64,000 nucleotides of DNA from Oasisia sp. SBJ-2009 (taxonomy: Eukaryota; Annelida; Polychaeta; Sabellida; Siboglinidae): positions 26,491,933 through 26,555,932 of the forward strand of contig OZ024862.1 of the NCBI GenBank assembly GCA_964017155.1, given 5' to 3'. The stretch's first letter is position 1. The number at the start of each line of letters is the position of its first letter. Below, piece after piece: positions 2,540 through 36,949 of this stretch. The translations under genes and the position numbers were made by a program. The notes below the pieces were generated by a model. The model ran no database searches, was not told where the DNA came from, and saw only the letters and a list, made by a program, of their open reading frames with translations.

Positions 2540-2690
2540 CAGCAGTGTGTGGGCAGGTGACCTGTGTGGACAGGTGACCTGTGTGGACAGGTGACATGTA
2601 TGGACAGGTGACCTGTGTGGACAGGTGACCTGTGTGGACAGGTGACATGTATGGACAGGTAACCTGTGTGGACAGGTGAACTGCGTGGAC
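2540..2690. repeat. Short tandem array, 16-17 bp unit (GTGTGGACAGGTGACCT)
   Basis: About nine degenerate copies of a unit reading GTGTGGACAGGTGACCT, with a variant ATGTATGGACAGGTGAC. The open frame through it on the - strand is a repeat artefact. Confidence 0.85.
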
Positions 2691-4236: not shown

Positions 4237-4294
4237 CTGTGCATATTCGGGCTGGCCGCTCAAGTTCGTTCCGAAAAGTTTGGTCAGTAGAACC
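4237..4294 (-). CDS. TDRD12: TDRD12 exon 24, Tudor 2 continues
   Basis: 58 nt encoding VLLTKLFGTNLSGQPEYAQ between TTGACAG and GTCAGT. It joins exon 23 in phase as HTFHR|VLLTK, as the family predicts. An alternative acceptor at 4308 would break the frame. No later exon was found. Confidence 0.5.
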
Positions 4295-7200
4295 CTGTCA
4301 ACAGACACCTGATGTAAGAGGCAGGACATGGCTAGGTAAAGGTAATTTCTAACACAACCCAGTAACAACTCCATGGTACCTTTCAAAGTGCCTTGCCCTT
4401 CCACCAGGGACGTAACAATACATTTAACTATCGGTGAAGTAACAGTCAATGTCACAGTGCAATATTATCAATAGTAGATTCAATATCGATAGTCATCGGT
4501 GATATCCCAGTGAACTCTTGTAGTCATTGGTGATGTCCCAGTGAACTCTTGTAGTCATTGGTGATATCCCAGTGAACTATCAATAGTCATTGGTGATATC
4601 CCAGTGAACTATCAATAGTCATCGGTGATATCCCAGTGAACTCTTGTAGTCATTGGTGATATCCCAGTGAACTCTTGTAGTCATTGGTGATATCCCAGTG
4701 AACTATCAATAGTCATTGGTGATATCCCAGTGAACTATCGATAGTCATTGGTGATATCCCAGTGATCTATCGATAGTCACTGGTGATGATATCCCAGTGA
4801 ACTATCGAGTCATCTGTGATATCCCAGTGAACTATCGATAGTCTTCTGTGATATCCCAGTGAACTCTTGTAGTCATTGGTGATATCCCATTGAACTATCA
4901 ATAGTCATTGGTGATATCCCAGTGAACTATCGATAGTCATTGGTGATATCCCAGTGATCTATCGATAGTCACTGGTGATGATATCCCAGTGAACTATCGA
5001 GTCATCTGTGATATCCCAGTGAACTATCGATAGTCTTCTGTGATATCCCAGTGAACTATCGATAGTCACTGGTGATATCCCAGTGAACTATCGATAGTCA
5101 TTAGTGATATCCCAGTGAACTATCGATAGTCATTGGTGATATCCCAGTGAACTATTGATTATCATCAGTCATATCCCAGTGAACTATCAATTGAAATTGG
5201 CCAAACATGTCGGCAGGTTTACTTGTCTCTGTACTACTGTTTACAAACATGACTGTTCGACTTTATTATACATTTACTTATTTCCCAACACATCGACCAT
5301 AGCTGTCAATCAAATCAGCCTCACAGCAAGACTGCAAACTGACACCCTCTGTATGTAATCCACAGCACCACAGTCGTTTCAGCTGTGTGCTATATTTGTG
5401 ACGTGTTCTACGAAATGAGTCATATGTCAGCGAACTTTATTTCGAGAAAACATTGCATAAACACGCAACGATGACTTTTGACGATTTTGAATTTTTTTGT
5501 CACCAAAGTGAACTTTGATATCTTTTCTGTCAATTGGCAATGCTTATTTCTCATTTATATTATTATTTAGTACATTTTGTAGCCTTTTTACAAACACTAT
5601 GTAACATTTCACACATGAATTTCGTAAAACAGAACCGATAATTTGCACTTGTTCGAGTCGCATTCTTCAGGGTTTCTCTCAACGCATGGCGGACAGTTTT
5701 GTAGATATTTGGCTGTTTTTACAGTTTTACACATATTGGGCTGGGTTTAGTCGGTTTTGCATGCATGGGGCTTGATTTAAATAGTGATTTTCACCATTTT
5801 GCATTGTATTTCTGCGTATTCAAACTCATGTTGTAATGTTGATATGAAATATGAACAGTATATACACTGAGACTACATGTGAACATTTCTTACATTTATT
5901 ATTATATTTTTATATATTTTATATATTACTCAGTGGCTTATATTATTATTTACGTGCACAAATGAGTCGTTTACCTGTGGAATGTGTGCTGTATATCTCA
6001 GTGGTTTACCTGTGGAATGTGTGCTGTATGTCTCAGTGGTTTACCTGTGGAATGTGTGCTGTATGTCTCAGTGGTTTACCTGTGGAATGTGTGCTGTATG
6101 TCTCATCAGTGGTTTACCTGTGGAATGTATGCTGTATGTCTCAGTGGTTTACCTGTGGAATGTGTGTTGTATGTTTCAGTGGTTTACCTGTGGAATGTGT
6201 GCTGTATGTCTCATCAGTGGTTTACCTGTGGAATGTGTGCTGTATGTCTCATCAGTGGTTTACCTATGGAATGTGTGCTGTATGTCTCAATAGTTTACCT
6301 GTGGAATGTGTGCTGTATGTCTCAATAGTTTACATGTGGAATGTGTGCTGTATGTCTCAGTGGTTTACCTGTGGAATGTGTGCTGTATGTCTCAGTGGTT
6401 TACCTGTGGAATGTGTGCTGTATGTCTCATCAGTGGTTTACCTGTGGAATGTGTGCTGTATGTCTCATCAGTGGTTTACCTGTGGAATGTGTGCTGTATG
6501 TCTCAGTGGTTTACCTGTGGAATGTGTGCTGTATGTCTCAATAGTTTACCTGTGGAATGTGTGCTGTATGTCTCAATAGTTTACCTGTGGAATGTGTGCT
6601 GTATGTCTCAATAGTTTACCTGTGGAATGTGTGCTGTATGTCTCAATAGTTTAGCTGTGGAATGTGTGCTGTATGTCTCAGTGGTTTACCTGTGGAATGT
6701 GTGTTGTATGTCTCAGTGGTTTACCTGTGGAATGTGTGCTGTATGTCTCAGTGGTTTACCTGTGGAATGTGTGCTGTATGTCTCAGTGGTTTACCTGTGG
6801 AATGTGTGCTGTATGTCTCAATGGTTTACCTGTGGAATGTGTGCTGTATGTCTCAGTGGTTTACCTGTGGAATGTGTGCTGTATGTCTCAGTGGTTTACC
6901 TGTGGAATGTGTGCTGTATGTCTCAGTGGTTTACCTGTGGAATGTGTGCTGTATGTCTCAGTGGTTTACCTGTGGAATGTGTGCTGTATGTCTCAGTGGT
7001 TTACCTGTGGAATGTGTGCTGTATGTCTCAGTGGTTTACCTGTGGAATGTGTGCTGTATGTCTCAGTGGTTTACCTGTGGAATGTGTGCTGTATGTCTCA
7101 TCAGTGGTTTACCTGTGGAATGTGTGCTGTATGTCTCATCAGTGGTTTACCTGTGGAATGTGTGCTGTATGTCTCAGTGGCTTACCTGTGGAATGTGTGC

Positions 7201-10200
7201 TGTATGTCTCAGTGGTTTACCTGTGGAATGTGTGCTGTATGTCTCATCAGTGGTTTACCTGTGGAATGTGTGCTGTATGTCTCAGTGGTTTACCTGTGGA
7301 ATGTGTGCTGTATGTCTCATCAGTGGTTTACCTGTGGAATGTGTGTTGTATGTCTCAGTGGTTTACCTGTGGAATGTGTGCTGTATGTCTCAGTGGTTTA
7401 CCTGTGGAATGTGTGCTGTATGTCTCAGTGGTTTACCTGTGGAATGTGTGTTGTATGTCTCAGTGGTTTACCTGTGGAATGTGTGCTGTATGTCTCAGTG
7501 GTTTACCTGTGGAATGTGTGCTGTATGTCTCAGTGGTTTACCTGTGGACTGTGTGTTGTATGTCTTAGTGGTTTACCTGTGGAATGTGTGCTGTATGTCT
7601 CAATAGTTTACCTGTGGAATGTGTGCTGTATGTCTCAGTGGTTTACCTGTGGAATGTGTGCTGTATGTCTCAATGGTTTACCTGTGGAATGTGTGCTGTA
7701 TGTCTCAGTGGTTTACCTGTGGAATGTGTGCTGTATGTCTCAGTGGTTTACCTGTGGAATGTGTGTTGTATGTCTCAGTGGTTTACCTGTGGAATGTGTG
7801 CTGTATGTCTCAGTGGTTTACCTGTGGAATGTGTGCTGTATGTCTCAGTGGTTTACCTGTGGAATGTGTGTTGTATGTCTTAGTGGTTTACCTGTGGAAT
7901 GTGTGCTGTATGTCTCAATAGTTTACCTGTGGAATGTGTGCTGTATGTCTCAGTGGTTTACCTGTGGAATGTGTGTTGTATGTCTTAGTGGTTTACCTGT
8001 GGAATGTGTGCTGTATGTCTCAATAGTTTACCTGTGGAATGTGTGCTGTATGTCTCAGTGGTTTACCTGTGGAATGTGTGCTGTATGTCTCAGTGGTTTA
8101 CCTGTGGAATGTGTGCTGTATGTCTCAGTGGTTTACCTGTGGAATGTGTGCTGTATGTCTTTGGCCGCGTACAGCCCTCCCTCCTTCAGAAGGTCTACAA
8201 CATTCACACCTCTCGGTCAGTTCATTCTGTAGTGGCCAGTCCAAGAACTCTATTGTACAACTTACAATGTTGTGTCATAATAGTGTCACGTTTGTCTTGA
8301 TTTGGTTTCCTTTCATATACCAACATTCGTGCAGCGAATAAATATGTAAATCTAACAACTGAAGCAATGCTGTAATATGGGAAAAAGGCAACGATCAGTG
8401 TCTTTTTAACAATTGTTTTTCCTATGATGACACATTTGCTACTGTTATTAAGTCTCTTTATTGTTGTTGAAATAACTAAAGATTATTTCATTATACAACA
8501 ACTTTTTGACAATATTATTCACCTAATTTTGGTCTGCATTTTCCAGAAGAAGACAAAAAGGTATTAGCTTCCTTTATGTGACATCTCTGCCAGGGTGAGT
8601 AAACGAATATGTAACAAGTCATCTACTCCAGAGACAAGAAGCTCTGATAATAATCTGTTTAGGAGTTGCAACCACAAGAAACACATTTCAGTGACCAATG
8701 GTCCCAATCCTAGGTTTAGGATCAATTGTTATACAGAGTAGCTGATCAGATAGTGTTGAGTATAGTTACCCCATGGTAGTGTGAATGAAGGGAATGATTG
8801 GTACGTTGATGGATGTAATTACAGTAGCAGTGACATTGTTTTATACTTTACAACTGCCTCTGTTCTCTCACCTGGTTCCTTGCGGTTCTTGGGAGATGAG
8901 AACCACAAGCTCATCTCCAGGACCAGCTTGTGGTAGGTGAGGGCGTGAGACGTCACCTCCCCGGCCCGACTCGTGTGTTCCAGCAGGTGGCCCACGTAGC
9001 AGCTCGCACTTGTCACATACGTCACTAGCACCTGCAACAACATGACACGTCACTAGCACCTGGAACATGACACGTCACTAACACCTGGAACAACATGACA
9101 TGTCACTAGCACCTGGAACATGACACGTCACTAGCACCTGGAACATGACACGTCACTAGCACCTGGAACATGACATGTCACTAGCACCTGCAACATGACA
9201 TGACATGTCACTAGCACCTGCAACAACATGACACGTCACTAGCACATGCAACAACATGACATGTCAATAGCTCCTGCAACAACATGACACGTCACTAGCA
9301 CCTGCATCATGACACATCACTCACTAGCACCAGCAACAACATGACATGTCACTAGCACCTGCAACAACATGACACATCACTAGCACCTGCAACAACATAA
9401 CATGTCACTAGCACCTGCAACATGACATGTCACTAGCACCTGCAACATGACATGTCACTAGCACCTGCAACAACATGACATGTCACTAGCACCTGCAACA
9501 ACATGACATGTCACTAGCACCTGCAACATGACATGTCACTTAGCACCTGCAGCAACATGACATGTCACTAGCACCTGCAACATGACATGTCACTAGCACC
9601 TGCAACAACATGACATGTCACTAGCTCCTGCAATATCACACATCACTAGCTCCTGCAATATCACATGCCACTAGCACCTGCAATATCACACATTACATGT
9701 CACCAGTACCTACATTACTTACATGTCACTAGCACCTACAACTGTTATGTCATTTGCACTGACCACATTACATGTCACAAGCACCTCCACATTACATGTC
9801 ACAAGCACCTCCACATTACATGTCACTAGCACCTACGACATTACATGTCACTAGCACCTACAACATTACATGTCACTAGCACCTACAACATTACATGTCA
9901 CTAGCACCTACATTACATGTCACTAGCACCTACAACATTACATGTCACTAGCACCTGCAACATTACATGTCACTAGCACCTACATTACATGTCACTAGCA
10001 CCTACGACATTACATGTCACTAGCACCTACAACATTACATGTCACTAGCACCTACAACATTACATGTCACTAGCACCTACATTACATGTCACTAGCACCT
10101 ACATTACATGTCACTAGCACCTGCAACTATTATGTCACGTGCACTGACAACATTAACCTGGTGATATGACACCAATGCCTACATCATTACTGGAGATCAA

Positions 10201-13200: not shown

Positions 13201-16200
13201 CATAATCTTGTGACCTACCATCCCTGAATTCGAATCTACAACCAAACGTCAATTTCAATGGTAAAATGACACTACATTTACTCATATCCTAAATAAAAAT
13301 GTTTCACATAGAAAATGTAATAAAATTTCAACTGTTATAACTGAAATCTTGCAAGAGAAAGAGAAACCCTTTTCCACACACTTCCCGTGCAATAACTTGA
13401 CTGAAAGTTAAAACTGCGGTGATAATGAACAGACCTATCACTGGCAGTGAGTTCGCGGCGTGGCTGATGTTCCAGTCCCGTTGCACTCGCTCTATGTCTA
13501 GTGGCGACATCTCGTGGTGAACCAGCAGGGCATACATACTGCGGGACTGCAGGATCTGTGGGCAGAAACTGAGCTTGTGTGTGAAGGGAACACAGACTGA
13601 CCGACATGGAGGAGGGAGTTGAAGACAGCCAAATTCTTCATTGTAAGTGGCGAAGACTAAACATCTCAATCAAAAGCAGAAATTACGTTCACAGATTGCA
13701 ATCAAACTTAAAATTTTTATTTCACTATATCACATGGACCACAATTGCAGGCATGACAACATTAGACACAGTGAAAGTTGTCGATGCTTGTGTCAGTTTT
13801 AACTTTCGCGCACAACATAATTAGACAAAAACACACAAGCATGAACTGAAAACGCAGTATATCAATAGCATCTTCAAAATTATGTTAGATAACAATGTTT
13901 GCAATTGGGACAATATAACTATTGCTTGTTTAAATGGAAAACAGAACATCACATTTAACAAAAAATCTACTGTGGAAGCAAGCAGAGTTCCCAGCAGCAT
14001 CCTTTGGTGTTTAACGATCTTCCATTCCATGTTCAACACAGCAGACATCCTGTTAGCGACAACTACGCCGGCTAATTCATGTCATAGGACCAGACATCAT
14101 CCCTTAATACTCATCAGAATGCATATAGTTTATACTAGAAAACATGATTCTTCAAGAGAAACAAAGAGACAGCCTATCCTTACGATGACTATGAACCATG
14201 TACACGTACACTGAAGATCTGCTTGGCCTCACTGATGCGCTGTGTGAAGACAACGGTCCTCTGGGGGTGGGCCGTGGAGTCGAGGAGACCCAGCAACTGG
14301 CCGACTCGCTGGTCAGACTTACACATGATGGCCATCTACAAAGTGACCGCACAGTCTTGCACATTACCATGTAGTTGCTCAGTGCTTTTTCTGGACGCAT
14401 CACCTAACCATAATCCTACCAATCTATATGCATTAGAACTAGAATCTGTTGCAAATATATTATTTAGATTTTGTGTAACGATCGGACAAACTCCTTGCAC
14501 ACTTTATATAAATATGTTTTTCATACTATCTCCGAGTTGCACATCCACATGTAGTATTTGGGCTCTTATAATGCCATAATGTATATAAATGTGTGAACCA
14601 CCTCAACATAATATCTACACGACCGTGTACGACCGACCGACCGACCGACCGACCGACCGACCGACCGACCGACCGACCGACCGACCGACCGACCGACCGA
14701 CCGACCGACCGACCGACCGACCGACCGACCGACCGACCGACCGACCGACCGACCGACCGACATTTATGACATGAATACTTCATTAATCTTAAACCACATT
14801 AACAAAAATTTAAACTGTACACTTCTTATGACTTTACCATTGCATATATATATTTGTGATTTTTGTATGGACCTGTAACTGCACTGGTCCTGTAAATGTC
14901 GAACCTAAGAAAACATTACTAATAATAATAACACCGGGAATGAGACGAACCTGTCTGACTTGCCCAAAGACAGCGGCCTCCGCCTGTGACGAGATCAGAA
15001 TGAGGCCATCGGGCATGTAGGTCCTCACGAAGCGTTCGATGCCCGCCGTCCACTGACTGGCAAACAGCAGGAACTGATGAGGCAGCACGGTGCCCGACCC
15101 TCGCCGCTTCAGTACCGATGTGTAGATGGACATCATTTCCCGCACCTACATAAGGAAAGCTACATAAAGCAACATCATCGTAAAAATTGTAAACTATCGT
15201 TCTTATATACTAGTGTCCTGTTCTCAGGACTGGTGAGCTCGCCTTACACTTCATCCCCTCGACGACCTGGTCAATCCTTCTGAGCTTTCCCAGGAAGCAT
15301 GCATCTATGTTGTGAGTACTCCATGTCCATAGAGAGGGTCTTTGACAGAGAACTGTCAGTCCATCTTGTACTTACAGAGAGGGTCTTTGACAGAGACATG
15401 TCAGTCCATCTTGTACTTATAGAGAGGGTCTTTGACAGGGACCTGTCAGTCCATCTTGTACTTATAGAGAGGGTCTTTGACAGGGACCTGCCAGTCCATC
15501 TTGTACTTATAGAGAGGGTCTTTGACAGAGACCTGTCAGTCCATCTTGTACTTACAGAGAGGGTCTTTGACAGAGACCTGTCAGTCCATCTTGTACTTAT
15601 AGAGAGGGTCTTTGACAGGGACCTGTCAGTCCATCTTGTACTTATAGAGAGGGTCTTTGACAGAGACCTGTCAGTCCATCTTGTACTTATAGAGAGGGTC
15701 TTTGACAGGGACCTGCCAGTCCATCTTGTACTTATAGAGAGGGTCTTTGACAGGGACCTGCCAGTCCATCTTGTACTTATAGAGGGTCTTTGACAGGGAC
15801 CTGTCAGTCCATCTTGTACTTATAGAGAGGGTCTTTGACAGGGACCTGCCAGTCCATCTTGTCCTTATAGAGAGGGTCTTTGACAGGGACCTGCCAGTCC
15901 ATCTTGTACTTATAGAGAGGGTCTTTGACAGGGACCTGTCAGTCCATCTTGTACTTATAGAGAGGGTCTTTGACAGGGACCTGTCAGTCCATCTTGTACT
16001 TATAGAGAGGGTCTTTGACAGGGACCTGTCAGTCCATCTTGTACTTATAGAGAGGGTCTTTGACAGAGACTTGTCAGTCCATCTTCAAGACAGGCAGACG
16101 ACTGATGCAGACAGGTAATTACAACTGATAAGACCAGTGGACTTTACAGACGTCCATCTGGCCACTATCTAATGATTCTAAGCCTCAGGACCAACATTTA

Positions 16201-18761
16201 TGACTAGTACAACACTTAGCACAACTGGTAGTAACAAAACACATATGTTGTTGTTTAAATGAATAGACCAAATGACACTAGTTTGTCACCGAAAAAATAC
16301 TAAGCTAGCCAACAATGACTGTGATTAATGTAAATGGCTTCTTTGTAGCCATTGGCATGTTAAAGGGTAATTAAAGACAGGCAATGTAGAGGCCATTAAA
16401 GTCTAACATCTTGACAGTTGACACTGTGTTATTAATAATAACGTGATTAACGTAAATGGCTTCTTCGCAGCTAAAAAACACACAGTGGAGTAATTCAAGA
16501 CAGGCAAAGTTATTTCTGGCTAAGTGTTTGATATAGAGGGCAGCAGCAAAGTCTAACATCCTGATATTGTGTCGTTGTCTTCCACGGGCAACAGATGAGT
16601 AACATTAACAATGAACGGTCTAGTCCATAGCTTTTGCTTTTATTTTTGGTGTTCTGTTGTACAAAGATCACATTAAAAGATTTAAATGCAGGTAGCCAGA
16701 TAATATAATTTAACAAACGTACTGGTTCCACCAGGTCTTCAGTCAGGATGTCCGCATCATCCAGAACCTGCAAGGTGACAGCACAAGGTGACAGCACAAG
16801 GTGACAGCACAAGATGACAACACAAGGTCACAGCACAAGGTCATGACATGTTATTTACTTGCACGTGTATATTCCATTTAAGGCAACACCAATTGTTAAC
16901 TGTACATGTCTATGGGTCACATCCACACCAAAATGAAAATTTCACTGTTCTCTTCTCAAAAAGTAAGCATATGTTTTCACAAGGTCAAGTGGTTTTTATT
17001 TTTTATTACAGCCTTAAAAAATAAATCATTTAATCTCATGTCAGTGATGCCCATTACAAAGCAGATGCTAATGTTCGTTACTGCATACATTTGTTTTTCG
17101 ACACATGTTCCTTATGGAGATACACATTTTTAATAAGCAACAGAGAAAGCATTTGTTCTTTGACTGCTGTAAATTGTCCTTTGAGTTTATACTTCCACGA
17201 CGAATAAAATAAATGTATATTTCAAGATGACTTTTTCATTTTAAGGTGAAACGTATTCCTGCGAACACACTCTATCATGTACAGGAAGTGAATAAAACGT
17301 GGCCGGTGTGACTGACCATGTGACAAAGGCGTTCCAGAGACGTGATGTTCTTCTTCAGCATCCGGAGCAGGCTGTGAGGAGTGCACACAAGCAGCTCACA
17401 GCCATTGATGAGGTGGATCTGGCAGAGACAAGAGGAACTCTCTGTGAACATCTGGCCTAGTTCACACACAACTTTCTGTGTGAACATGGTAAATGACAGA
17501 CAACAAGAGCAACACTTAGCGAATCTCTGCTCTGACCCATGTACTATGTTCCCAGCGAATCTGGAGACCATTTCACTGATATTGTTTCGCATTCTTAAAC
17601 CGGAATTTTTCACTTTAAAATCAATTGAAAAATACTAAATTTAAATTCAATTGTGATTCTTTACAGTGACATTGAATACCTGAAAACTGTCAACATTGGT
17701 GTGTCATGGAATAGTGTCCTCAGTAATATGGCAATGGATATTTTGTGTTTTGAAAAATTTCATTTACTTTGACAATGGATTTTGTGTATTGTTGAATTTT
17801 CCTTAAGAGGCAGTCCCCCGCCCCGACCGAAAGACAGAAAGCATCACCTGCCCAATGTTCTGAGAAGAAAACAATATCATTCGTAGCATCCTTTATAGTG
17901 CTTTTCTTCAATCAAACCATATTGTAAAACCAATAACTAACATACTATTATGTACTCTTTGTCATATATTGTAAGCAGATCAGTGTTTGCGGTATACAAA
18001 TATCAGAATGCTTTTCTTCTGTATAATCTCTTTTTATCTAACATAATTATTTTGAGATATCACACATTTTTATGTTGGAACAATTATTATTAATAATAAA
18101 TAAATAAAAAATTATAGTTGACATAGCAACAATACCAAGTTTCACATTTTACTAAATTGCCGTAGTTGATATTTATGGGAGATTTTCACAGCATTTGTTT
18201 AGCACTGCATACAGCCTAACGTTAGTTTTACAAATATCAAACCTAACTACTAACTAAGTAAATATTTCATCCCTCCAACATAATTTCACTTTCTCAACAT
18301 ACCATCCTTGCCAAGGGATCTGAATAAGTTATAGTTGCATGTTTAGAGAACAACGTGAGAGACCTGCATTAGAAATTGGTGCAAGAGGTCACGACCTTGA
18401 CCTACCTCGAGAGACTCCTCGGCACCTCCTCCGTATATGATGGCCGTGCGACACTTCTTCATGTTGCCGAGGAAACACTCGCAGATCTCAAACACCCCGA
18501 CCGCTCGGTCCCAGGACGAACAGACAATGACACACAGAGGCTGAAAACAAACATTTGCTGCTTGATAATATTCATATTTATTTTATGAAGTGCAATTTCC
18601 AATAAAATGCTCAAAGCACTGTACAAGACTAATAATCTAAATATTCAATGCAGCCGATATATAAGCACGGTAAGTATAAAAATAAATCTGATATATTAGT
18701 TATAAAAACAGACATCTCATTCAAATAAATTAATAAAACTGTAAATAAAGAATATTTACAT

Positions 18762-18803
<42 letters not shown>

Positions 18804-21800: not shown

Positions 21801-24800
21801 AGATAAGATACAGATGACATGTAAATGTATTATTGCAGAATTTTTTATCTGAGAGCAACTGGACTAAACAGTGAAAAAACAATGTAATATGCTAAAGAAA
21901 TATTGTCAAATGATAATTAAATTAATGAAGCAATGTTTTTCTTCTTCAAATAACAGTTAATGAAAGAAATATATCAGTTACACTACAACTATCATAGATT
22001 TGTAAAATTGCTACTGCATTTGTCAATTTCATATATAAGTATCGATGCATTCAGCTTGACCACTTTAATCATATTCATTATCGGTTGAAATTAAACCATA
22101 CACCACAAGTCACATAATTGTGTATGTTGTTTAAAGGGCATGTTGTGAAGAATCACACACTCAAGGATAATCCAATATCAGCTTAATACATTGCAGTAAA
22201 GATACTTTTCAAAGTTGGACACAATTCGCATAAAGATGTCCCTCGTAATTTTTATAATTGGAAACAAAATGGACTGAGGAATACAGCCATGGCCCCTTCC
22301 AAGGCTACCTGTAGATGGCGTCCTCTGCCTCAGAGCCAGAGCTCGGCCGTCCCTGCGACCGTTTCAGTATCGACTTCAACTTTCGGATGCGGGTTGCAGG
22401 ACTGAAAACAAATGTGGTACTCAATGGTGAAATTTCATGAAATATTTAAACTGATGGGATAATGCAGTTATAGAGACTACAATGATGGACTTACTTTGTT
22501 CAAAGTTAAAGAGTACAGGAGTTTTTCTTAGATAAAAACACTGGCTGATTTCATAGGATGCCACTGATTTTTCATAAAATAAACTCAAAACAGAGTACAC
22601 CATTTTGCATTCATACCCATTCAAATGTGACCAGGTGAAGGCTTCAACAAATTCATGTATATACCTACTTGAAATTGTTGTCAGAAAGGAAGAGAAGAGG
22701 GCTTAACAGCGTTTGTTAACATCGTTCACTAATATATTTCCCCAAAAAATTACGATCCTAATGTATCATAAATGATTAGACAAACAATTACATAATTACC
22801 TTGTCTGCATTTCATCAGAATCGCTGAACCGGACTTTGGTTGCCGATGGTGGGGTTTTTGGCCTTCCTTGGGGTGGGGTGTTGACCCTTCCTTGGGGTGG
22901 GTTGGTGGAAGTCATCTTCTGCTGTGCTAGGAAGTGAGTGGGTAGTCTGGCATGGTGTGTGGTCCCCACCCCTGGCCCACTCCCTGGTGATCTGTCATTC
23001 ACAGTTACATCCCGAGTGGGCTCCGCTTGACCCGCCGGACTGACCACAACATCAGTTGGCTGATTCTCATGATACTGACCGGATTCAGTTGGCAATGAGT
23101 GGGGTGAGTCTGTAGACCCGTGGGGTGGGGTGGCCACTGTCGCGTTCCTCTGAGTCGCCAGGAAGTGAGTGGGCAGCCTAGCACTGGGAGACTTCACTGC
23201 CCCCTGTCCATCTCCCGGCAACCGGTCACTCACCCCACCACCCTGTTTGGTTCCCGCTTCTCTCGTATCTTCAGCTGAATTCTGGACGGATCCAATTAGT
23301 GGGGAATGCAGGTCCCGAGAACTGACACTGCCCTCAGAGTAAACACCAACCTTGGGCTGTATATCCCTGAGGCCTTGGAGCAGGGCGAGGCCACGGCCTT
23401 TGGGTAGTGAGGCCACACCCTGCGCCTCAGCCAGCTGGGGTTTCTGGGGGCTTGGAGGCTTAATCCTTGTGGTCACCAATGGGGGTGACTCCTGGACTGG
23501 TGTCTGTCTATTACCGTGACCTGGCACTGTTTGTACGACTGCCTTCAAGGCACCTCCTCGACCAAATGGCACAACAGGTGACTTGGTGACGTTTGCACCG
23601 TCACCTTTCGCCCTGCCTCCACCAGCGGTCAGCGGAAGTCCAGCAGACGAGTGGACGCTGTCACCTGCCTCTGGCTGTGACCCAGGAGCGCCGTCCAGCC
23701 GTGCGGCGTACTCGTTCTCGACCAACTTGTCGTTGATGCAGATTCTGTCTCCAGTGAGTGTGTCCTCCATGTAGAGGCGGATGTGTAGACGTCCTCTGTC
23801 ATCAGCCTTTACCAGCTCCACCTGTCTATTCACTGACCCTGCATGAGAACCAGATGTGTAGTGTAACTAAAATCGCTTATTAAAAAGACAAACTGTTTGG
23901 ATTTACAAAAAATTATCAATTTTTTTAAACATTCCCCAAGTCCGTTGTCAAATAAATTATATTGTCAAATAATTTTTATGATATTGAGAACAGTGATTTC
24001 GTAATTTTACGTGTATAAGTATATATGTATCTGTACTTTATAAGTTTATGTTTTGGGGTCACATGAAGATGGCACATTATGTGCCATGTGACCACCACGT
24101 AACAATACTTTTTTGTTTAGATTGCTCATGTACATGTATAATGTTGTTACGAAACCAAAAATTATATTTTTTTAACAGAACTGAATCAGCTCCACCTGAC
24201 TGTTTACTGAACCTGCATGGGAACAGAACTGAACAGTGAACACCGAGAAAGAAATTCTTCTATGTGGCATTCTGCTCGACTCTCTGTCAAACTGAACACC
24301 ACTGACTTCTTTTAGGAAGCATTCAGCCACACTACAACTAATGTGCAAAGACAAATGCATATGTGACTATCCCCCATTGTTTATAGCCAGATACGTATTC
24401 ATACAACTCAGTGAATTGGAGCAATGTAGAGTGAATGAATTTGACCATAGTTTGACATGGCAGCACAGTATTCAATTCTGTGTCAAGTCTTTGACTGGTG
24501 CCATCTTTAAAAACAGTGGATATATGATTGTTTACAAAGGCAAAGTAATATATTTTAAATTGCAGTATCTTAAAAACGTTAGTTAAAGGACAAACAAAGT
24601 TAACTTTTACGTGGCATACACCTAATAGAGTTAATATAAAGTAACAATTTCCACATATACTCAATTTTTTAACGCCAGCGGTTTACCAGAAAAATATTTT
24701 TTAACACCCAGCCATCCAAATACTACGCGCTACTCCATCTTAGACGAAGAATGACGTCACGACGGTGATCGAGGCGCTCTCCACGTAGATTCCCTACATA

Positions 24801-27800
24801 GGGTTTGGCTGTTGTCATGAAATGGCTGCAACTCTGCAACGCGCGTAACATGCTGATGACGGTAAATATAAAGTTGTCTATTATTGTTATCGCTGAAATC
24901 ATCCCATCAACTGATGATACATGACTACATGTCTACTTCAAAGCATTTCTCCTAAAAATGGACCGAGCAAAGTGAACTGTACTTGGACTGGAGGGATTCC
25001 AAACAGTACGCCCGCAAATGTGAATCAATTTCTTCAATACTACCGGTTGTTTCAACTATTACTGCAACCGTATGCCGAACAGTAAGGCATAATTACTAAA
25101 GTATACCATAGATTTAACCACAGATTTAGATACACGTCTATAAGCAGCTGCTAGATGTCACGCCAACTGAACGAACTGTCGAAGACTCGAAGTTGTTGAC
25201 CCTTAACAACGTCGCAGGTTAAGGGTCAGACATAGAATGCTGCGCGCTGAATGGCCAAGTCAATTTAACCCTTCACTTAATGGCGGCGTCTAGACCATCT
25301 TGGATTTCGTTAGAAGTTTAGACTTTAAAGTCACATTCTGAGTAAACCGCTGACGTTAAAAAATTGAGTATATGTGGAAATTGTTACTTTATATTAACTC
25401 TATTAGGTGTATGCCACGAAACAGTTAACTTTTTTTTGCCTTTAAATATGTGGCTCTAGCTTATGTAACTCTCGTGATATGGCCATAATAGGCTATAGCA
25501 TTGTTCTTTTTGAGCTGCCACAGTTTTGGACGCCATCTTGAATTCTGTGTTAGCTCAAGGAGGATTCCTGGGGAGTGTTAGTAGGTCATGCCGGACACTT
25601 CCTCAGACGTGTGGTGAAAAATTTGCTTTTTATTATCATTGACTTTTTTGGTTTAACTCTAAAACACCTGGACTGAAGTGTAAGGTAGTTCCTACCTGCG
25701 ACAAGTTTCCTCATGTAGTCCGTCGCTGATACATCCCAGTCTTTGCATGGTCTGAAAAAAATTCATATTTGTTTCATTTACCCCATATTATCAGTTCCAA
25801 TTACAGAATAATTTCAAAGCCAGAAGATAATAGAACACAGACAAAGACTTCAAAGTAAGAAAACCTCTTGCCTGGAGTGCCTGTCACAAACTACCAAAAA
25901 TGTGGTCGTCAACACTCTCAAAAAGGATAAAATCAGACTGTTTATTGCTACTGTCGAATCAGCTCTACTGTATGGTGCGGAAATGTGGACAATAACACAA
26001 ACTATGAAAAATCAACTTGACGGTTGTTACACTAGAATGCTACGGATGGCCCTTAATGTCTCATGGAAACAACACATGCCCAACATACAACTATATGGTG
26101 AATTACCGCCAGGATCCACAAAAGTACAACAAAGAAGAATGCGGCTCGCTGGGCATTGTGTTAGACACGATGATGAAGTCGCCAACAAACTTGTCCTGTG
26201 GCAGCCAATGGATGGGCATGCAAACCGGGGAAGCCAAAAAATGACTTATGTTGACAACCTGCTGCAAGACATAGGGCTGGGAAAGACAAGTGAACTGCAG
26301 ACAGTCTTGATGGACAGAGGGTGCTGGAAGGGCGGTGTGTTCAACGCGGGGCGTCCTGAATGACGACCAAGAGAGAAGAGAGAGAGAATAGAATTATGTA
26401 CCTGACCCCGGCCCTGTAACTGACAGGTGACTTACTGCATGGATGTCTGCATGTCGATGGGCGATGAGATCATGGTGAGGGGTTGAATGCCCCACAACAC
26501 ACACTCCTTTGCCTGGGGGGGCACATTCTGCACCGACGGTGGCGCCTCACGCAACCTGGTGGACAACACAAGAACTACACTGACAATCTCAAGTGGGGGT
26601 GACGTCAAACACCGCAAGTCGCTGCAGAATTCAATATCCAATATCGTACAACTAAGCCAAACTATTTTTTAACATCCCTAAATAGATGGACGTTAATGAG
26701 TTTTTGTAATCACACGATAAACGATTAAATGAAATAAATGTACAGACAAAGCACATGTTTGATAAAATAAAGAATAATAACAGTATTGTTATTTACTTCA
26801 TAAAAAATATAGCTGAAATTTCTTAAAAGAATTAATTTGTTTAAGCCTTCCAAAAATATTGCACAGAATTACATAATATTTTCAGAACACATATACATCC
26901 AGCAAATATACTGTCAGAATTACTTATTATGAACTTGCAATGTCCCTAATTCTGCTGATTCAATATAACATATTCCACAAATTAAACTAAAAGTCAAGCT
27001 CTCACCATCGGAGTGGAATCATCTCCTTGTCAGCATAATCAAGCAGGAAACAGCTGTAAAAAATACACAAACGTGGTCTTACACTGATCGTTACAATGTC
27101 ATATGATGGGTAACAAATACATAGACGTGGTCTTACACTGATCATTACAAAGTCATATGATGGGTAACAAATACACTGACGTGGTCTTACACTGGTCATT
27201 ACAATGTCATATGATGCATAACAAATACACAGATGTGGTCTTACACTGATCATTACAATGTCATATGATGGGTAACAAATACACAGACGTGGTCTTACAC
27301 TGATCATTACAAAGTCATAGGATTGATAACAAATACACAGACGTGGTCTTACACTGGTCATTACAAAGTCATATGATGCGTAACAAATACACAGACGTGG
27401 TCTTACACTGATCATTACAAAGTCATAGGATGGGTAACAAATACACAGATGTGGTCTTACACTGATCATTACAAAGTCATATGATGCGTAACAAATACAC
27501 AGACGTGGTCTTACACTGATCATTACAAAGTCATACGATGGGTAAATTAATTGCAAAAGAATAAAGCACATAAGTGACCTACTTTGCCTTGCTTCCCTGT
27601 CTTGTCATCATGACCTCTTGAACTCTGACCCGATACCATTTCTTATCCGATGATCTGCGTCCTAAACATACCTACAAGAAATAAACAGTTACTAGTCTTT
27701 AGCAGCCTGCCAGATGTTGTTTAGATATAAGAAAGATGAGTTGAATTATTTAACGTAACCAAGACGTTTCAAGGTCAACAACATCAACTATAAAACTGCT

Positions 27801-29026
27801 GTTTTAGTTCTAAAAACATTAGGTAAATAGACAGTAAATGAATCAGTCGCCACATTGTCTTACAAGTTACAGACATCTCTCTGGATGTACCTGACATGAA
27901 GTAATTATTTGTAATCATTAGTAAGCAAATAAACCTTCAGACTTGCTGATAATTGTTATAAATATATTATGTACAGGACAGCACGGGAATATAAACTCCG
28001 TTCAATGGAGCAAAATACAAGACCTACAAATTAAAACATATAATAAATTGAATACATATTTAGTTATGCTTGATGCTTATAAAGTAAAATATTAGATCAG
28101 GTGGACACACATTATAAGTAAATAAAGCAACAGTATGCGCTTTGTCATCAATCTAATTTGAGGATGTTCAACAAGATTTAGCATGACTTTTTTGTAAGAT
28201 GGTAATATTCAAGGCTTAATGCAGGATCAAATTTTTACCATTCACACGCTTTGGTGGACACATGGATGTTAACTGCTAAGCCAGTTTACAAAATTTAAAT
28301 GTGCTTGATGACCTTATAAATGGAGTACAAACACTGACACCATTTACACTCACTTTTAATGCATAACTCACAATATCTATGGTTTTGGTCTTTTGGAAGA
28401 CCCTTTTTTGATCCTTTATTTTTTACCAATCCACCACCCATATTTCTACCCGACCACAACGGATTTTACCCCTCCAAATAACAGTGGACGGGTCTCTGCA
28501 TAAAGCTATGGTAAGACTGCGGTGATCACTGACCTGGCCCCTGACTGGGTTGGTGAGAGCGTCTACCTCCGACTGGGCGTCCCCACACAGCTGTTGTATC
28601 TGCATCGACAGCTGGTGGAACTGTTCCGCCTCACTGCTCATGTCCACCCCGGGCGCCTCCTTCACCCACAACTGACCGGCGTCCACTACCTGGTAGAGAA
28701 AGAGACAGATCGATCAAAGCAGCGCAACACAAGCAAAGCGCTAATTTTGTTTAACAATGACAAGCAGTATTCATGGTCGACATAACAGTATTATTGAATT
28801 CATGTAATTTCACCTCAACACAAACTGCGTAATATACAGCCTGCTGTTAGACCCTCAAATAAAGTACAAATCTTATATATATTATTTAGAAGATCCGGAG
28901 AATTACCAGCCTTAAAATCAACACTGTTAATAAAACAGTCTCAGTGCACAATACTTTTCCATAAGCTGGTGTAAATTTGGTGTGGGTTTAACATACCTTC
29001 AGGATCTGTACATTGACCAGGGCCAT
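4237..29026 (-). CDS. TDRD12: TDRD12 homologue, Tudor/DEAD-like helicase of the piRNA pathway (24 exons, 3' end not found)
   Basis: Germline nuage protein; in animals TDRD12 (fly Yb-family relatives) supports secondary piRNA production with PIWI proteins. Reconstructed exons, 5' to 3': 28997-29026, 28534-28689, 27583-27671, 27006-27053, 26436-26555, 25696-25751, 22800-23838, 22309-22401, 21667-21783, 21164-21203, 20354-20461, 19112-19303, 18406-18540, 17317-17418, 16723-16767, 14951-15145, 14210-14335, 13435-13555, 12211-12356, 11422-11621, 10335-10437, 8872-9031, 8137-8209, 4237-4294. All junctions are GT-AG and phases chain through 3552 nt (1184 codons). Order: Tudor 1 (about 1-165), disordered linker (about 167-600), degenerate DEAD-like helicase (about 633-1000), CCCH finger (1043-1062), start of Tudor 2 (1088 on). 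P-loop GGKT is kept (K670); motif II reads LDDAD. The Tudor 2 core and CS domain expected at the C-terminus are missing. Recognition is strong, based on remembered alignment. Confidence 0.85.
4486..5190. repeat. 31-32 bp minisatellite with higher-order structure
   Basis: About 22 copies of a 31-32 bp unit, TAGTCATTGGTGATATCCCA followed by GTGAACTATCGA. The unit holds two perfect palindromes, GATATC and ATCGAT. A multi-unit block with the same private variants (extra GATGATATC, then GAGTCATCTG, then GTCTTCTG) occurs at about 4762-4860 and again at 4950-5048, so a higher-order repeat of about 188 bp was duplicated. It lies in the intron between TDRD12 exons 23 and 24, about 190 bp upstream of exon 24. 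Confidence 0.95.
5969..8159. repeat. 35-bp minisatellite, about 62 copies
   Basis: The + strand unit is GTTTACCTGTGGAATGTGTG followed by CTGTATGTCTCAGTG, 35 bp, with a 38-bp variant carrying an extra TCA. Few substitutions (CAATAG for CAGTGG, TTGT for CTGT) show recent expansion. The right end is the 3' edge of TDRD12 exon 23: on the - strand each unit holds CACATTCCACAG|GTAAAC, a complete 5' splice site. Long + strand frames of up to about 520 codons come from lack of stops in the unit and are not genes. Confidence 0.97.
8137..8209 (-). CDS. TDRD12: TDRD12 exon 23, 3' end inside the minisatellite
   Basis: Encodes GVNVVDLLKEGGLYAAKDIQ then HTFHR. In memory this aligns to the conserved FGLYGLAEKTLFHRV segment of TDRD12. 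Phases 1 in and 2 out fit exons 22 and 24. The last 23 exonic bases and the donor CACAG|GTAAAC are the final unit of the 35-bp array. The acceptor (GACCGAGAG) lacks a clear pyrimidine tract, so the 5' edge is less certain. Confidence 0.6.
8872..9031 (-). CDS. TDRD12: TDRD12 exon 22, start of Tudor 2
   Basis: Encodes VLVTYVTSASCYVGHLLEHT, the N-terminal strand of an extended Tudor domain, through MSLWFSSPKNRKEP. The acceptor TTGTTGCAG|GTGCTAGTGAC is the terminal copy of a large tandem array. Confidence 0.85.
9032..10150. repeat. ~27-bp minisatellite at the exon 22 acceptor, about 40 copies
   Basis: Units of 22-31 bp, typically ACATGTCACTAGCACCTGCA plus ACAACATG. The distal half uses CTACAACATT in place of CTGCAACAA. 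On the - strand each unit reads TTGTTGCAG|GTGCTAGTGAC, the 3' splice site plus the first 11 bases of TDRD12 exon 22. The array fills most of the intron between exons 21 and 22. Confidence 0.95.
10335..10437 (-). CDS. TDRD12: TDRD12 exon 21, second half of CCCH finger
   Basis: Joined to exon 20 it gives CGYFKAFGYCRDEKRCNGRH, an exact C-x8-C-x5-C-x3-H zinc finger spanning the intron. It ends TGHVR before donor GTAGGT. Confidence 0.9.
10480..10816 (-). mobile_element. tRNA-headed SINE
   Basis: Read on the - strand it starts with GTAGAGCGCAATGACTCGGG, an A-box-like segment, then GGGTTTGAATCC, a B-box match, so the head is tRNA-derived. Its other end has GTAAAGCGCTTTGAACGG and a GCGCTATATAAA tail. 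It sits in the TDRD12 intron before exon 21. Partial copies at 15190-15310 and 24305-24490 share the body. Confidence 0.75.
11163..11219. promoter_or_regulatory. Three tandem X-box (RFX) motifs, 22-bp spacing
   Basis: GTTGTTAGGCAAC (11163-11175), GTTGCTAGACAAC (11185-11197) and GTTGCTAGGCAAC (11207-11219) each fit the RFX consensus RYYNYY-N-RRNRAC. They lie within a 22-bp tandem triplication in the intron between TDRD12 exons 20 and 21. Function is inferred from motif only. Confidence 0.5.
11422..11621 (-). CDS. TDRD12: TDRD12 exon 20, end of helicase and first half of CCCH finger
   Basis: Encodes GMSYLLVTEECVTQAPYIIK and ends LCGYFKAFGYC, giving the first two cysteines (C-x8-C) of a zinc finger. 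Confidence 0.9.
11770..11818. repeat. AT-rich (TA)n microsatellite
   Basis: TATGTATGTATATATATATA-type run in the intron between TDRD12 exons 19 and 20. Confidence 0.9.
12211..12356 (-). CDS. TDRD12: TDRD12 exon 19, motif V region
   Basis: Encodes VVTGEALREVTITNASCVVH and FTPPSSQPEFGRRLWCM, the TDRD12-specific form of motifs V and VI. The arginine finger HRxxR is not recognisable, so ATP hydrolysis may be weak. Confidence 0.9.
12436..12650. repeat. Dispersed repeat, copy 1 of a pair inside TDRD12
   Basis: Shares with 17655-17820 the blocks CAGTGA...TACCTGAAAAC, GGTGTGTCATGGAA, TAGTGTCCT and GAATTTTCCTTAAGAG, with substitutions and indels, in the same orientation. Probably an old non-autonomous transposon or duplication; no ends are recognised. 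Confidence 0.7.
13435..13555 (-). CDS. TDRD12: TDRD12 exon 18
   Basis: Encodes MYALLVHHEMSPLDIERVQR and W..., matching the lobe-2 segment between motifs IV and V. The acceptor is TTTCTGCCCACAG. Confidence 0.85.
14210..14335 (-). CDS. TDRD12: TDRD12 exon 17, helicase motif IV
   Basis: Encodes VGQLLGLLD and RTVVFTQRISEAKQIFS, the second RecA lobe strand. The donor AGT|GTACGT at 14210 was chosen because it keeps phase 0 into exon 18; a GT two bases earlier would not. Confidence 0.85.
14631..14760. repeat. (CGAC)n microsatellite, about 32 units
   Basis: Uninterrupted CGAC/GACC tetramer of about 130 bp in the intron between TDRD12 exons 16 and 17. All frames are open because no stop can form; none is a gene. 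Each unit has a CpG. Confidence 0.99.
14951..15145 (-). CDS. TDRD12: TDRD12 exon 16, end of helicase domain 1
   Basis: Encodes PHQFLLFASQWTAGIERFVR, where FASQW replaces the SAT of motif III, then EAAVFGQVRQ, the conserved linker between the RecA lobes. Confidence 0.9.
15190..15310 (-). mobile_element. SINE fragment (tail side)
   Basis: Resembles the tail and body of the SINE at 10480-10816 (AGTGTCCTGTTCTCAGGACTG, CGCCTTACACTT, CAGGAAGCAT). It ends where the 45-bp array begins. Confidence 0.5.
15327..16085. repeat. 45-bp minisatellite, about 17 copies
   Basis: The unit is TAGAGAGGGTCTTTGACAGG followed by GACCTGTCAGTCCATCTTGT and ACTTA. At 45 bp (15 codons) it keeps one + strand frame open, repeating IERVFDRDLSVHLVL, until one shortened unit breaks the frame at about 15780. 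It lies in the intron between TDRD12 exons 15 and 16 and is not thought to be coding. Confidence 0.97.
16318..16565. repeat. Imperfect direct duplication of about 120 bp
   Basis: GTAAATGGCTTCTTTG, AAAGACAGGCAA and AAAGTCTAACATC recur in the same order at 16330-16412 and 16453-16560, next to the 3' side of exon 15. Confidence 0.6.
16723..16767 (-). CDS. TDRD12: TDRD12 exon 15, motif II (DDAD instead of DEAD)
   Basis: 45-nt exon VLDDADILTEDLVEP. LDDAD takes the place of LDEAD: the Walker B aspartate is present and the glutamate is replaced by D. Vertebrate TDRD12 is also divergent here. The acceptor tract is a 13-bp tandem repeat. Confidence 0.85.
16768..16843. repeat. 13-bp tandem repeat forming the exon 15 acceptor tract
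   Basis: About five copies of CAAGGTGACAGCA. On the - strand this is TGCTGTCACCTTG, and the last copy runs into CAG|GTTCTGGATG, the acceptor of TDRD12 exon 15. Confidence 0.9.
17317..17418 (-). CDS. TDRD12: TDRD12 exon 14, helicase motif Ib
   Basis: Encodes CELLVCTPHSLLRMLKKN, the TPgRL-type motif Ib in its TDRD12 form TPHSLLR, then SLERLCHM leading to motif II. Confidence 0.9.
17655..17820. repeat. Dispersed repeat, copy 2 of a pair inside TDRD12
   Basis: Partner of 12436-12650, in the intron between exons 13 and 14, in the same orientation and more diverged in the middle. Confidence 0.7.
18406..18540 (-). CDS. TDRD12: TDRD12 exon 13, helicase motif Ia
   Basis: Encodes PLCVIVCSSWDRAVGVFE, the equivalent of the DEAD-box PTRELAxQ segment in divergent TDRD12 form, and ends YGGGAEESLE. 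Phase 0 to 0. Confidence 0.85.
18759..18832. repeat. (AT)n microsatellite
   Basis: TATATATA runs with single G interruptions in a TDRD12 intron. Confidence 0.95.
19112..19303 (-). CDS. TDRD12: TDRD12 exon 12, helicase Q region and P-loop
   Basis: Encodes PRIMQSFTWPAVLRGLSLVG, the Q-motif equivalent, then APRKRGGKTFAYLLP, motif I with the GKT of the P-loop present. Walker A is not fully canonical, but the lysine (K670) is retained. Confidence 0.9.
20354..20461 (-). CDS. TDRD12: TDRD12 exon 11, pre-helicase segment
   Basis: 36 codons including DFGILVHGHSPKPMLRL and FVELLKR, the conserved lead-in to the helicase Q-motif region. Phase 0 to 0, donor GTAAGT. Confidence 0.85.
21164..21203 (-). CDS. 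TDRD12: TDRD12 exon 10, microexon in linker
   Basis: 40-nt exon RFHQTSDSFMSETQ, donor GTTAGA. Supported only by phase and splice signals. Confidence 0.55.
21667..21783 (-). CDS. TDRD12: TDRD12 exon 9, linker
   Basis: Low-complexity linker with SPRSRGLTSQSDVQKSTQQR. Supported by phases 2 in, 2 out and good splice sites rather than by a domain. Confidence 0.65.
22309..22401 (-). CDS. TDRD12: TDRD12 exon 8, basic/acidic linker
   Basis: Encodes SPATRIRKLKSILKRSQGRP then SSGSEAEDAIY; a basic stretch next to a possible CK2-type acidic serine patch. Phases fit. Confidence 0.75.
22800..23838 (-). CDS. TDRD12: TDRD12 exon 7, long disordered linker
   Basis: This 1039-nt exon starts SVNRQVELVKADDRGRLHIR and LYMEDTLTGDRICINDKLV (end of extended Tudor 1). 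About 290 residues rich in P, S, T, G and Q follow. The linker holds two copies of ARLPTHFLAxQ, each preceded by DR(L/S)PGxGxG and followed by TPP or NPP, so an internal duplication of about 80-90 residues is visible. No folded domain is recognised there. Confidence 0.85.
24305..24490 (-). mobile_element. SINE fragment
   Basis: Shares GGAAGCATTCAGCCACACTA, CCATTGTTTATAGCCAGATA and GGAGCAATGTAGAGTGAA with the middle of the SINE at 10480-10816. The tRNA head has decayed. Confidence 0.65.
24587..25441. mobile_element. Palindromic-ended MITE, copy A, TTAA flanks
   Basis: The ends are long inverted repeats of about 110 bp, beginning AGGACAAACAAAGTTAACTT and continuing GGCATACACCTAATAGAGTT through AGCGGTTTA. 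Flanking TTAA is present at both sides (24583-24586, 25442-25445). A related copy lies at 40127-42816. It is in the intron between TDRD12 exons 6 and 7. A piggyBac-like origin is suggested by TTAA only. Confidence 0.75.
25696..25751 (-). CDS. TDRD12: TDRD12 exon 6
   Basis: Encodes QPCKDWDVSATDYMRKLVA, the alpha-helical end of the extended Tudor 1 region. The acceptor is GAATTTTTTTCAG. Confidence 0.8.
25835..26363 (+). mobile_element. Non-LTR retrotransposon fragment (RT C-terminal part)
   Basis: Encodes KVRKPLAWSACHKL then, after a frameshift near 25905, LLYGAEMWTITQTMKNQLDG, CYTRMLRMALNVSWKQH, QRRMRLAGHCVRHDDEVANK and TYVDNLLQDIGL, ending at 26363. This is the thumb/C-terminal region typical of animal LINE ORF2. 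It is truncated at the 5' end, lies in the intron between TDRD12 exons 5 and 6, and is antisense to the gene. Confidence 0.85.
26436..26555 (-). CDS. TDRD12: TDRD12 exon 5
   Basis: Encodes WLREAPPSVQNVPPQAKECV..., the helix and strands that follow a Tudor core. Phases 2 in, 2 out fit both neighbours. Confidence 0.8.
27006..27053 (-). CDS. TDRD12: TDRD12 exon 4, Tudor 1 core
   Basis: Encodes CFLLDYADKEMIPLR, the typical Tudor FLxDYxD strand. The acceptor TGTATTTTTTACAG is the terminal variant of a 54-bp tandem array immediately upstream. Confidence 0.85.
27061..27549. repeat. 54-bp minisatellite at the exon 4 acceptor, about 9 copies
   Basis: The unit is GTAACAAATACACAGACGTG, GTCTTACACTGATCATTACA, AAGTCATATGATGG. 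On the - strand the copy next to the exon reads TGTGTATTTTTTACAG|CTG, so the acceptor is a variant of the unit's TGTGTATTTGTTACC. 54 bp is 18 codons, and one - strand frame is open through all copies and into exon 4. Confidence 0.95.
27583..27671 (-). CDS. TDRD12: TDRD12 exon 3, first strands of Tudor 1
   Basis: Encodes VCLGRRSSDKKWYRVRVQEV..., the beta strands of a Tudor barrel (W-Y-R-V-R-V). The donor GTAGGT leaves 2 nt carried. A TAG is read at once if the intron is retained. Confidence 0.8.
28213..28506 (-). mobile_element. ~280-bp MITE, copy 1
   Basis: The ends resemble GCTTTATGCAG inverted. The interior, read on the - strand, has GAGACCCGTCCAC, GGGTAGAAATATGG and TGTGTCCACC, all shared with 44788-45051 and 48227-48490. 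It lies just past the exon 2 donor of TDRD12. Confidence 0.75.
28534..28689 (-). CDS. TDRD12: TDRD12 exon 2
   Basis: 52 codons, phase 0 to 0, opening VVDAGQLWVKEAP and ending NPVRGQ before GTCAGT. It matches the conserved N-terminal lead into Tudor 1. The acceptor TCTCTTTCTCTACCAG is strong. Confidence 0.85.
28997..29026 (-). CDS. TDRD12: TDRD12 exon 1 (start codon)
   Basis: ATG at 29026-29024 opens MALVNVQILK, then a GTATGT donor. An acceptor-like AACAAACTAG just before the ATG suggests an upstream non-coding exon. Phase 0 out. Confidence 0.75.
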
Positions 29027-36683: not shown

Positions 36684-36949
36684 CTATGCCTGCATGGTTA
36701 TGGTTTCGGTTTCCCTTGGCAAGACTGCTGGCTCTTCTGTTGTCGAGTCTGGTTTGAGCACGAAGACAATATCCGAGAGGATATAGAAGGAGCGTTCAAG
36801 GTCACCTTCACACAGGTAAGGCAGCCTCGTGAAACGTTCAACAGTGAAGCCAAACGGCTTGAAGACGTCTCTCTCAAAACTGGCGATCTGCTCCTCCACT
36901 GTGTCGCCGCTCAAAGGTAGGATCTCGGAAGGCTTGTGATCAGTTCCAC
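36684..36949 (-). CDS. METTL9: METTL9 exon 6 (stop)
   Basis: Encodes GTDHKPSEILPLSG to ILSDIVFVLKPD and a short tail. Acceptor TCGTTCTTCAG. Confidence 0.95.

What the first reader, a model, noticed from the sequence alone, without database searches (positions are those of the whole stretch)
4237..29026. Tandem arrays gather at splice junctions of one piRNA-pathway gene
At least four of about 23 introns of TDRD12 have a minisatellite sharing sequence with, and touching, a splice site (exons 4, 15, 22, 23). Further arrays lie in the introns before exons 16 and 24, and a CGAC array before exon 17. METTL9, TP53INP and the NOL4-like gene have none, though the locus is shared. A process tied to transcription or splicing of this germline gene (R-loops, reintegration of spliced ends, slippage at exon edges) would explain it, and arrays in a piRNA gene could also be sources of small RNAs. 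This is the best candidate here for an undescribed phenomenon.
Basis: inference. Interest (0 to 1): 0.85.

Follow-up and report, generated by a model that had tools for sequence, protein, structure and literature searches.

The report
Splice-site minisatellites in a tubeworm
In a deep-sea tubeworm, short tandem repeats that copy the very edge of an exon, splice site included, are piled up at a number of gene junctions; this oddity was known from a few genes of the lancelet amphioxus, and it is not confined to the germline gene where it was noticed.

Summary
The arrays are real. In TDRD12 (minus strand, exons 1-24 at 29026-4237) arrays overlap the exon 22 acceptor and the exon 23 donor, repeating 11 and 24 nt of exon with the splice signal; those at exons 4 and 15 only abut the acceptor. 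The host is a vestimentiferan tubeworm (METTL9 93% identical to Ridgeia piscesae), and part of its assembly could be read. TDRD12 runs on to about -33 kb with five more duplicated donors, one repeated 96 times: 7 of 69 modelled junctions. Myosin genes show the same at 4 of 73 junctions (Fisher P = 0.36), so the feature is not specific to a piRNA gene. Tandem duplication of exon-intron boundaries is described in amphioxus as "mirages"; the ten literature searches run listed no annelid case. A duplication across a junction leaves the mRNA unchanged if the exon-proximal copy is spliced, so arrays can grow into the intron unseen. Which copy is spliced was not tested.

The parts
4237..29026 (-). 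TDRD12 exons 1-24 and introns 1-23
   Evidence: Spliced model, GT-AG throughout, phases consistent; Tudor, DEAD, Helicase_C; Pecten TDRD12 alignment
1344..1433 (-). TDRD12 exon 25 (donor GC); further exons lie left of the window, to about -33 kb
   Evidence: tblastn with Pecten TDRD12 and splice-site scoring
5965..8160 (-). Donor mirage of exon 23: 35/38-bp units with 23 nt of exon end plus 12 nt of intron start; array runs 24 nt into the exon
   Evidence: exon 23-24 junction supported by Pecten alignment
9021..10156 (-). Acceptor mirage of exon 22: 22/25/28-bp units with intron end, AG and about 12 nt of exon; array runs 11 nt into the exon
   Evidence: AG intact in 39 of 41 copies
27056..27545 (-). 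54-bp array filling most of intron 3 and ending 2 bp before exon 4; shares the pyrimidine tract, not the exon
16771..16841 (-). 13-bp array ending 3 bp before exon 15; shares the pyrimidine tract, not the exon
15329..16085 (-). 45-bp array in intron 15, 183 bp from exon 16; no junction match above its null
4484..5188 (-). 32-bp array in intron 23, 189 bp from exon 24; no junction match above its null
14630..14761 (-). CGAC microsatellite in intron 16, 189 bp from the exon 16 donor
2546..2690 (-). 17-bp array in intron 24; its best junction score (24, exon 19 acceptor) is marginally above its null maximum (22)
24190..24230 (-). Single 75% copy of the exon 7 acceptor region, about 374 bp upstream of it (approximate bounds)
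36684..43643 (-). METTL9, 5 exons; control gene with small intronic arrays and no duplicated junction (0 of 8)

Best explanation
These are exon-boundary minisatellites of the kind called mirages in amphioxus, here found at many junctions of a vestimentiferan tubeworm. (1) Shown: in 11 junctions the repeat unit (about 20-77 bp) straddles the splice junction; copies extend into the intron, and the copy nearest the exon is the one that continues into the coding sequence. (2) Inferred: the seed is an ordinary small tandem duplication (slippage or break repair) that happens to straddle the junction. (3) Inferred: it is tolerated because splicing at the exon-proximal copy restores the same mRNA, while the other copies count as intron. 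(4) Inferred, with support: the array then grows and is homogenised by slippage, unequal exchange and block duplication. The feature is not tied to TDRD12 or the piRNA pathway.
For: Seven true junction duplications in TDRD12 among 69 modelled junctions and four among 73 in myosin genes on other chromosomes. Both acceptors (A22, L048, L049, L023) and donors (D23, D27, D31, D33, D35, D36, L047). Coding use of the exon 22-24 junctions supported by Pecten TDRD12. Unit columns vary as often in the exon-derived as in the intron-derived part (38 of 127 against 42 of 150, P = 0.79), as expected if decoy copies are unconstrained. Block duplication inside the D33 array: two 1310-bp spacers 99.8% identical. 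Splicing to a further donor would bring a stop 1, 1 and 23 nt after the exon in D23, D27 and D31, so the normal copy is presumably favoured. Published amphioxus mirages are reported not to disturb splicing (PMC3087553, passages).
Against: Uniform, neutral seeding underpredicts: 11 junction-spanning arrays against 2.3 expected, P about 3e-5; so something favours junctions, or arrays there persist longer. Mean diversity of the exon-derived part is slightly lower (P = 0.049). Most decoys keep their splice dinucleotide (e.g. 96 of 96 in D33; 39 of 41 in A22; but 36 of 45 in L048). The donor array of exon 23 shows no decline of identity with distance (rho 0.03), unlike the acceptor array of exon 22 (rho -0.68). 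No RNA evidence that the exon-proximal copy is used.
Confidence: 0.8

Rival explanations
1. One reading: a process tied to transcription or splicing of this germline gene (R-loops, reintegration of spliced ends, slippage at exon edges) makes the arrays; they may also feed small RNAs.
For: Excess of junction-spanning arrays in TDRD12: 7 against 1.0 expected; the left part alone exceeds myosin, 5 of 23 against 4 of 73, P = 0.03.
Against: Same structures in myosin genes; whole-gene comparison 7 of 69 against 4 of 73, P = 0.36. Array density in TDRD12 not raised.
Confidence: 0.05
2. Genome-wide mutational targeting: tandem duplications start preferentially at splice junctions, for instance through AG|GT microhomology or co-transcriptional structures, in any gene.
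Against: The expectation rests on few genes, on TRF periods and on merging choices. Longer persistence of arrays anchored on a selected junction would give the same excess. Several mirage junctions are not AG|GT (D31 CTG|GT, D36 ACG|GT, L048 AG|TA).
Confidence: 0.2
3. The arrays are functional: banks of decoy splice sites that tune splicing or expression.
For: Most copies keep the splice dinucleotide; mean diversity slightly lower in exon-derived columns (P = 0.049).
Against: Number of variable columns does not differ between exon- and intron-derived parts (P = 0.79); in L023 the decoys have lost the AG; copy numbers range from about 3 to 96 between junctions.
Confidence: 0.07
4. Assembly artefact: repeat collapse or expansion created the arrays.
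For: Two 1310-bp spacers in the D33 array are 99.8% identical.
Against: Arrays with diverged units at 11 separate junctions in several genes; 764-Mb assembly in 33 contigs.
Confidence: 0.03

Closest known systems
Mirages: minisatellite-like tandem duplications of exon-intron boundaries in amphioxus (Adh3, troponin C, globins BflGb6 and BflGb9, PGBD5); PMC3087553 passages, PMC3902484 passages
   Same: Units straddle a splice junction at either the 5' or the 3' side; short units (10-72 bp in Adh3); many copies keep AG/GT.
   Different: Host is an annelid, not a cephalochordate; up to 96 copies at one junction; seven in one gene; a rate could be estimated (4 of 73 myosin junctions). Splicing and length polymorphism not tested here.
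[quoted passage not shown] model proposed for amphioxus globins in PMC3087553)
   Same: Tandem duplication across an exon-intron boundary; several units here read GT...AG (59 of 60 in D23; 95 of 95 in D33).
   Different: No new intron or exon is shown here; copies appear to lie inside an existing intron. Units of D31, D35 (as cut) and D36 were not seen to end in AG.
Intronic minisatellites near alternative exons in Caenorhabditis elegans (PMC4039745, passages) and in earthworm metallothionein intron 1 (PMC12783039, passages)
   Same: Minisatellites inside introns, the second in an annelid.
   Different: In the passages read, the units are not said to be copies of a splice junction.

Membership tests
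Mirages | Tandem repeat whose unit spans an exon-intron boundary | tested here: met
   7 of 69 TDRD12 and 4 of 73 myosin junctions; not met by the arrays at exons 4 and 15, which only abut
Mirages | Both 5' and 3' boundaries can be duplicated | tested here: met
   7 donors, 4 acceptors
Mirages | Many repeats contain the AG or GT signal | tested here: met
   exception L023, where decoys lost AG
Mirages | Regular splicing of the mRNA is not disturbed | not testable with these tools
   No transcript data at hand
Mirages | Length instability between haplotypes or within an individual | not testable with these tools
   One assembly only; block duplication in D33 is indirect
Mirages | Reported host group: cephalochordates (not part of the definition) | tested here: not met
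   METTL9 93% Ridgeia piscesae, 85% Lamellibrachia satsuma; Ridgeia is a siboglinid annelid
Intron gain by tandem duplication | A new intron or exon used in the transcript | not testable with these tools
   No transcript data at hand
Feature specific to a germline/piRNA gene | Present in TDRD12, absent from genes outside that pathway | tested here: not met
   4 of 73 myosin junctions; METTL9 0 of 8

The most novel reading that the evidence does not exclude
In vestimentiferan tubeworms splice junctions are genome-wide hotspots for tandem duplication: several percent of them carry arrays of cloned splice sites, seeded or retained there several times more often than elsewhere in introns, so that a large share of genes carries banks of intact decoy sites that the spliceosome must ignore.
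Probability: 0.35. Interest if true: 0.75.

Novelty: new member of a known kind. Interest (0 to 1): 0.5.

Why it matters
In what I could read, mirages are a curiosity of a few lancelet genes. Finding them in an annelid, in unrelated genes and at several percent of sampled junctions, would show that they arise in distant lineages. It would give many natural tests of how a spliceosome picks one site among dozens of near-identical ones, and of whether such arrays are a source of new introns.

Tried and rejected
Amphioxus as host: my first guess from the mirage literature; rejected by METTL9 (93% Ridgeia piscesae, 85% Lamellibrachia satsuma, 59% or less for the rest of the 120 listed of 919).

Selection on decoy copies: a first count biased by its anchors suggested conserved exon parts; re-cut and realigned units removed it for variable columns (38 of 127 against 42 of 150, P = 0.79) and left a marginal difference in mean diversity (P = 0.049).

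Enrichment measured as locally duplicated junction windows: junctions are less often duplicated than random intron positions (3 of 46 at 75% identity against 28%), because arrays fill intron interiors. Array edges and uniform seeding were used instead.

The 45-, 22-, 32-, 28- and 17-bp arrays as former junction copies: no convincing match (the 17-bp array is marginally above its null).

Kinesin control: 127 exon matches but no letters could be fetched. Piwi, Tudor and SNF2 family searches and a DNA search for the 35-bp unit did not complete, so other piRNA-pathway genes were not compared.

Full report
WHAT WAS CHECKED. Tandem Repeats Finder confirms the arrays named. A spliced model of the minus strand gives 24 exons and 23 GT-AG introns between 29026 and 4237, open through 1171 aa, with Tudor, DEAD and Helicase_C domains. 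Nine homologs were found for the helicase half, seven of them named TDRD12, best Pecten maximus at 34%; no tubeworm protein was among them. Alignment to the Pecten protein runs across the exon 21-22, 22-23 and 23-24 junctions, so the junctions discussed below do not rest on splice consensus alone.

ANATOMY IN THE WINDOW. The exon 23 donor array (5965-8160) is built of 35-bp units, sometimes 38, with 23 nt of exon end and 12 nt of intron start; 59 copies of CAG|GTAA were counted, and 59 of 60 units read GT...AG. The exon 22 acceptor array (9021-10156) has 22-, 25- and 28-bp units with the intron end, AG and about 12 nt of exon; AG is intact in 39 of 41 copies. In the acceptor array identity to the functional junction declines with distance (rho -0.68); in the donor array it does not (rho 0.03; copies are not independent). 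The arrays at exons 4 and 15 end 2-3 bp before the exon and share only the pyrimidine tract. The other arrays compared match no junction convincingly. METTL9 introns also hold small arrays, away from junctions, contrary to the finding.

HOST. METTL9 built from the window is 93% identical to Ridgeia piscesae and 85% to Lamellibrachia satsuma; the rest of the 120 listed hits are at 59% or less. Ridgeia is a siboglinid annelid. The window lies in an unnamed 764-Mb assembly of 33 contigs.

BEYOND THE WINDOW. 100 kb on each side were read (20 kb withheld, 5 kb of it within the TDRD12 span). TDRD12 continues to about -33 kb. The left part was modelled from Pecten hits and splice scores; exons matching Pecten residues of about 1508-1702 were not found, the donors of exons 32 and 34 were not assigned, and some sites scored weakly. 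Of the 69 junctions modelled in the gene, seven are spanned by arrays: A22, D23, D27, D31, D33, D35 and D36. D33 holds 96 copies of a 38-bp unit over 6.2 kb, GT intact in 96 of 96, with two 1310-bp spacers that are 99.8% identical. One search shows 0 of 10 for D35 only because its offset was one base out; realigned, its dinucleotide is invariant in the 7 units used.

CONTROL GENES. Myosin-head exons were taken genome-wide: 78 matches, the best 30 cut out as loci, on nine contigs. In these 30 loci 59 junctions were curated from matrix scores and by eye (one acceptor of L021 was not used, and the L028 acceptor was set by hand). Two are true mirages, the acceptors of L048 and L049. Arrays lie 9, 13, 27 and 30 bp off four others (L050, L021 and L038 donors, L024 acceptor). 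Eleven further matches inside the same loci were examined; two repeat exons already counted. For the nine others 15 junction motifs were named and 14 found. Two are mirages: the acceptor of the second exon in L023, whose decoys have lost the AG, and the donor of the second exon in L047. Another exon, the second in L042, has arrays 5-6 bp from both its ends without duplicated junctions. Total 4 of 73. Some of these myosins are close paralogs, so junctions are not fully independent. METTL9: 0 of 8.

COUNTS. 7 of 69 against 4 of 73: Fisher P = 0.36; left part of TDRD12 alone, 5 of 23, against 4 of 73: P = 0.03. Pooled 11 of 142, 95% interval 3.9-13.4%; since TDRD12 was chosen for the feature, the myosin rate of 5.5% (1.5-13.4%) is the fairer guess. 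If founding duplications fell uniformly over introns, 1.0 would be expected in TDRD12 with TRF's best-scoring periods, or 0.47 in the window part (2 seen, P = 0.08) and 0.19 in the left part (5 seen, P about 2e-6) with base periods and the three 38-bp arrays counted as one. The expectation for 73 myosin junctions was scaled from that for 59, and all of these depend on TRF periods and merging. Two readings fit the excess: seeding favours junctions, or an array anchored on a selected junction persists longer. They were not separated.

HOW IT LIKELY WORKS. A tandem duplication across a junction gives exon end - intron start - exon end - intron start. If the exon-proximal site is spliced, the mRNA is unchanged and the rest is intron. 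In D23, D27 and D31 splicing at a further donor would bring a stop 1, 1 and 23 nt after the exon. For D35 and D36 the script started out of frame; read by eye in the open frame that it prints, D35 also meets a stop one base after the exon, while the units of D33 (38 bp) and D36 (43 bp) shift the frame. So the normal copy is presumably favoured, but this is inference: no RNA was available. Variable columns are as frequent in the exon-derived as in the intron-derived part of the units, which argues against a function for the decoys; mean diversity is slightly lower in the exon part (P = 0.049).

WHAT IS KNOWN. Passages of PMC3087553 describe minisatellite-like duplications of intron-exon boundaries in amphioxus globins and Adh3, call them mirages, say that data suggest no interference with splicing, and propose them as a source of introns. 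Passages of PMC3902484 add PGBD5 and troponin C. Ten searches of the library were made; none listed an annelid case of boundary duplication, judging by titles and abstracts shown and the passages opened. The tubeworm genome papers PMC9921365 (passages) and PMC10192322 (passages) mention tandem repeats or introns only in annotation or size context. The library holds open-licence papers only, so this absence is weak evidence.

VERDICT. A real and striking structure, misread as gene-specific. It works like, and in its testable features belongs with, the mirages of amphioxus, in a new phylum and apparently not rare there. The open points are the excess at junctions and the choice of splice site among many near-identical copies.

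Noticed in passing
left of the window, about -13765 to -20009 (L008, L009): The 96-copy donor array of TDRD12 exon 33 is interrupted twice by a 1310-bp spacer; the two spacers are 99.8% identical, which suggests a recent block duplication or an assembly duplication.
   Followed up: partly
window 37798-36950 and 1343: METTL9 intron 4 starts with GC, and the TDRD12 exon 25 donor also reads GC.
   Followed up: no
window 3-1193 (+): Intronless PF03407 glycosyltransferase reading frame, cut by the window start; closest proteins 97% and 87% identical, without names; best named hits are Capitella teleta at 38% and 33%.
   Followed up: partly
window 46892-47356 (-): Reverse transcriptase fragment (RVT_1, E 2.8e-5, just under Pfam's cut-off).
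   Followed up: no
left flank -100 to -33 kb against right flank 29 to 164 kb: Minisatellites are denser on the left (0.34 per kb) than on the right (0.15 per kb); TDRD12 sits on the dense side.
   Followed up: no
window 22848-22901 (-): A 24-bp repeat of about two copies inside coding exon 7 of TDRD12 (PPQGR repeats in the protein).
   Followed up: no
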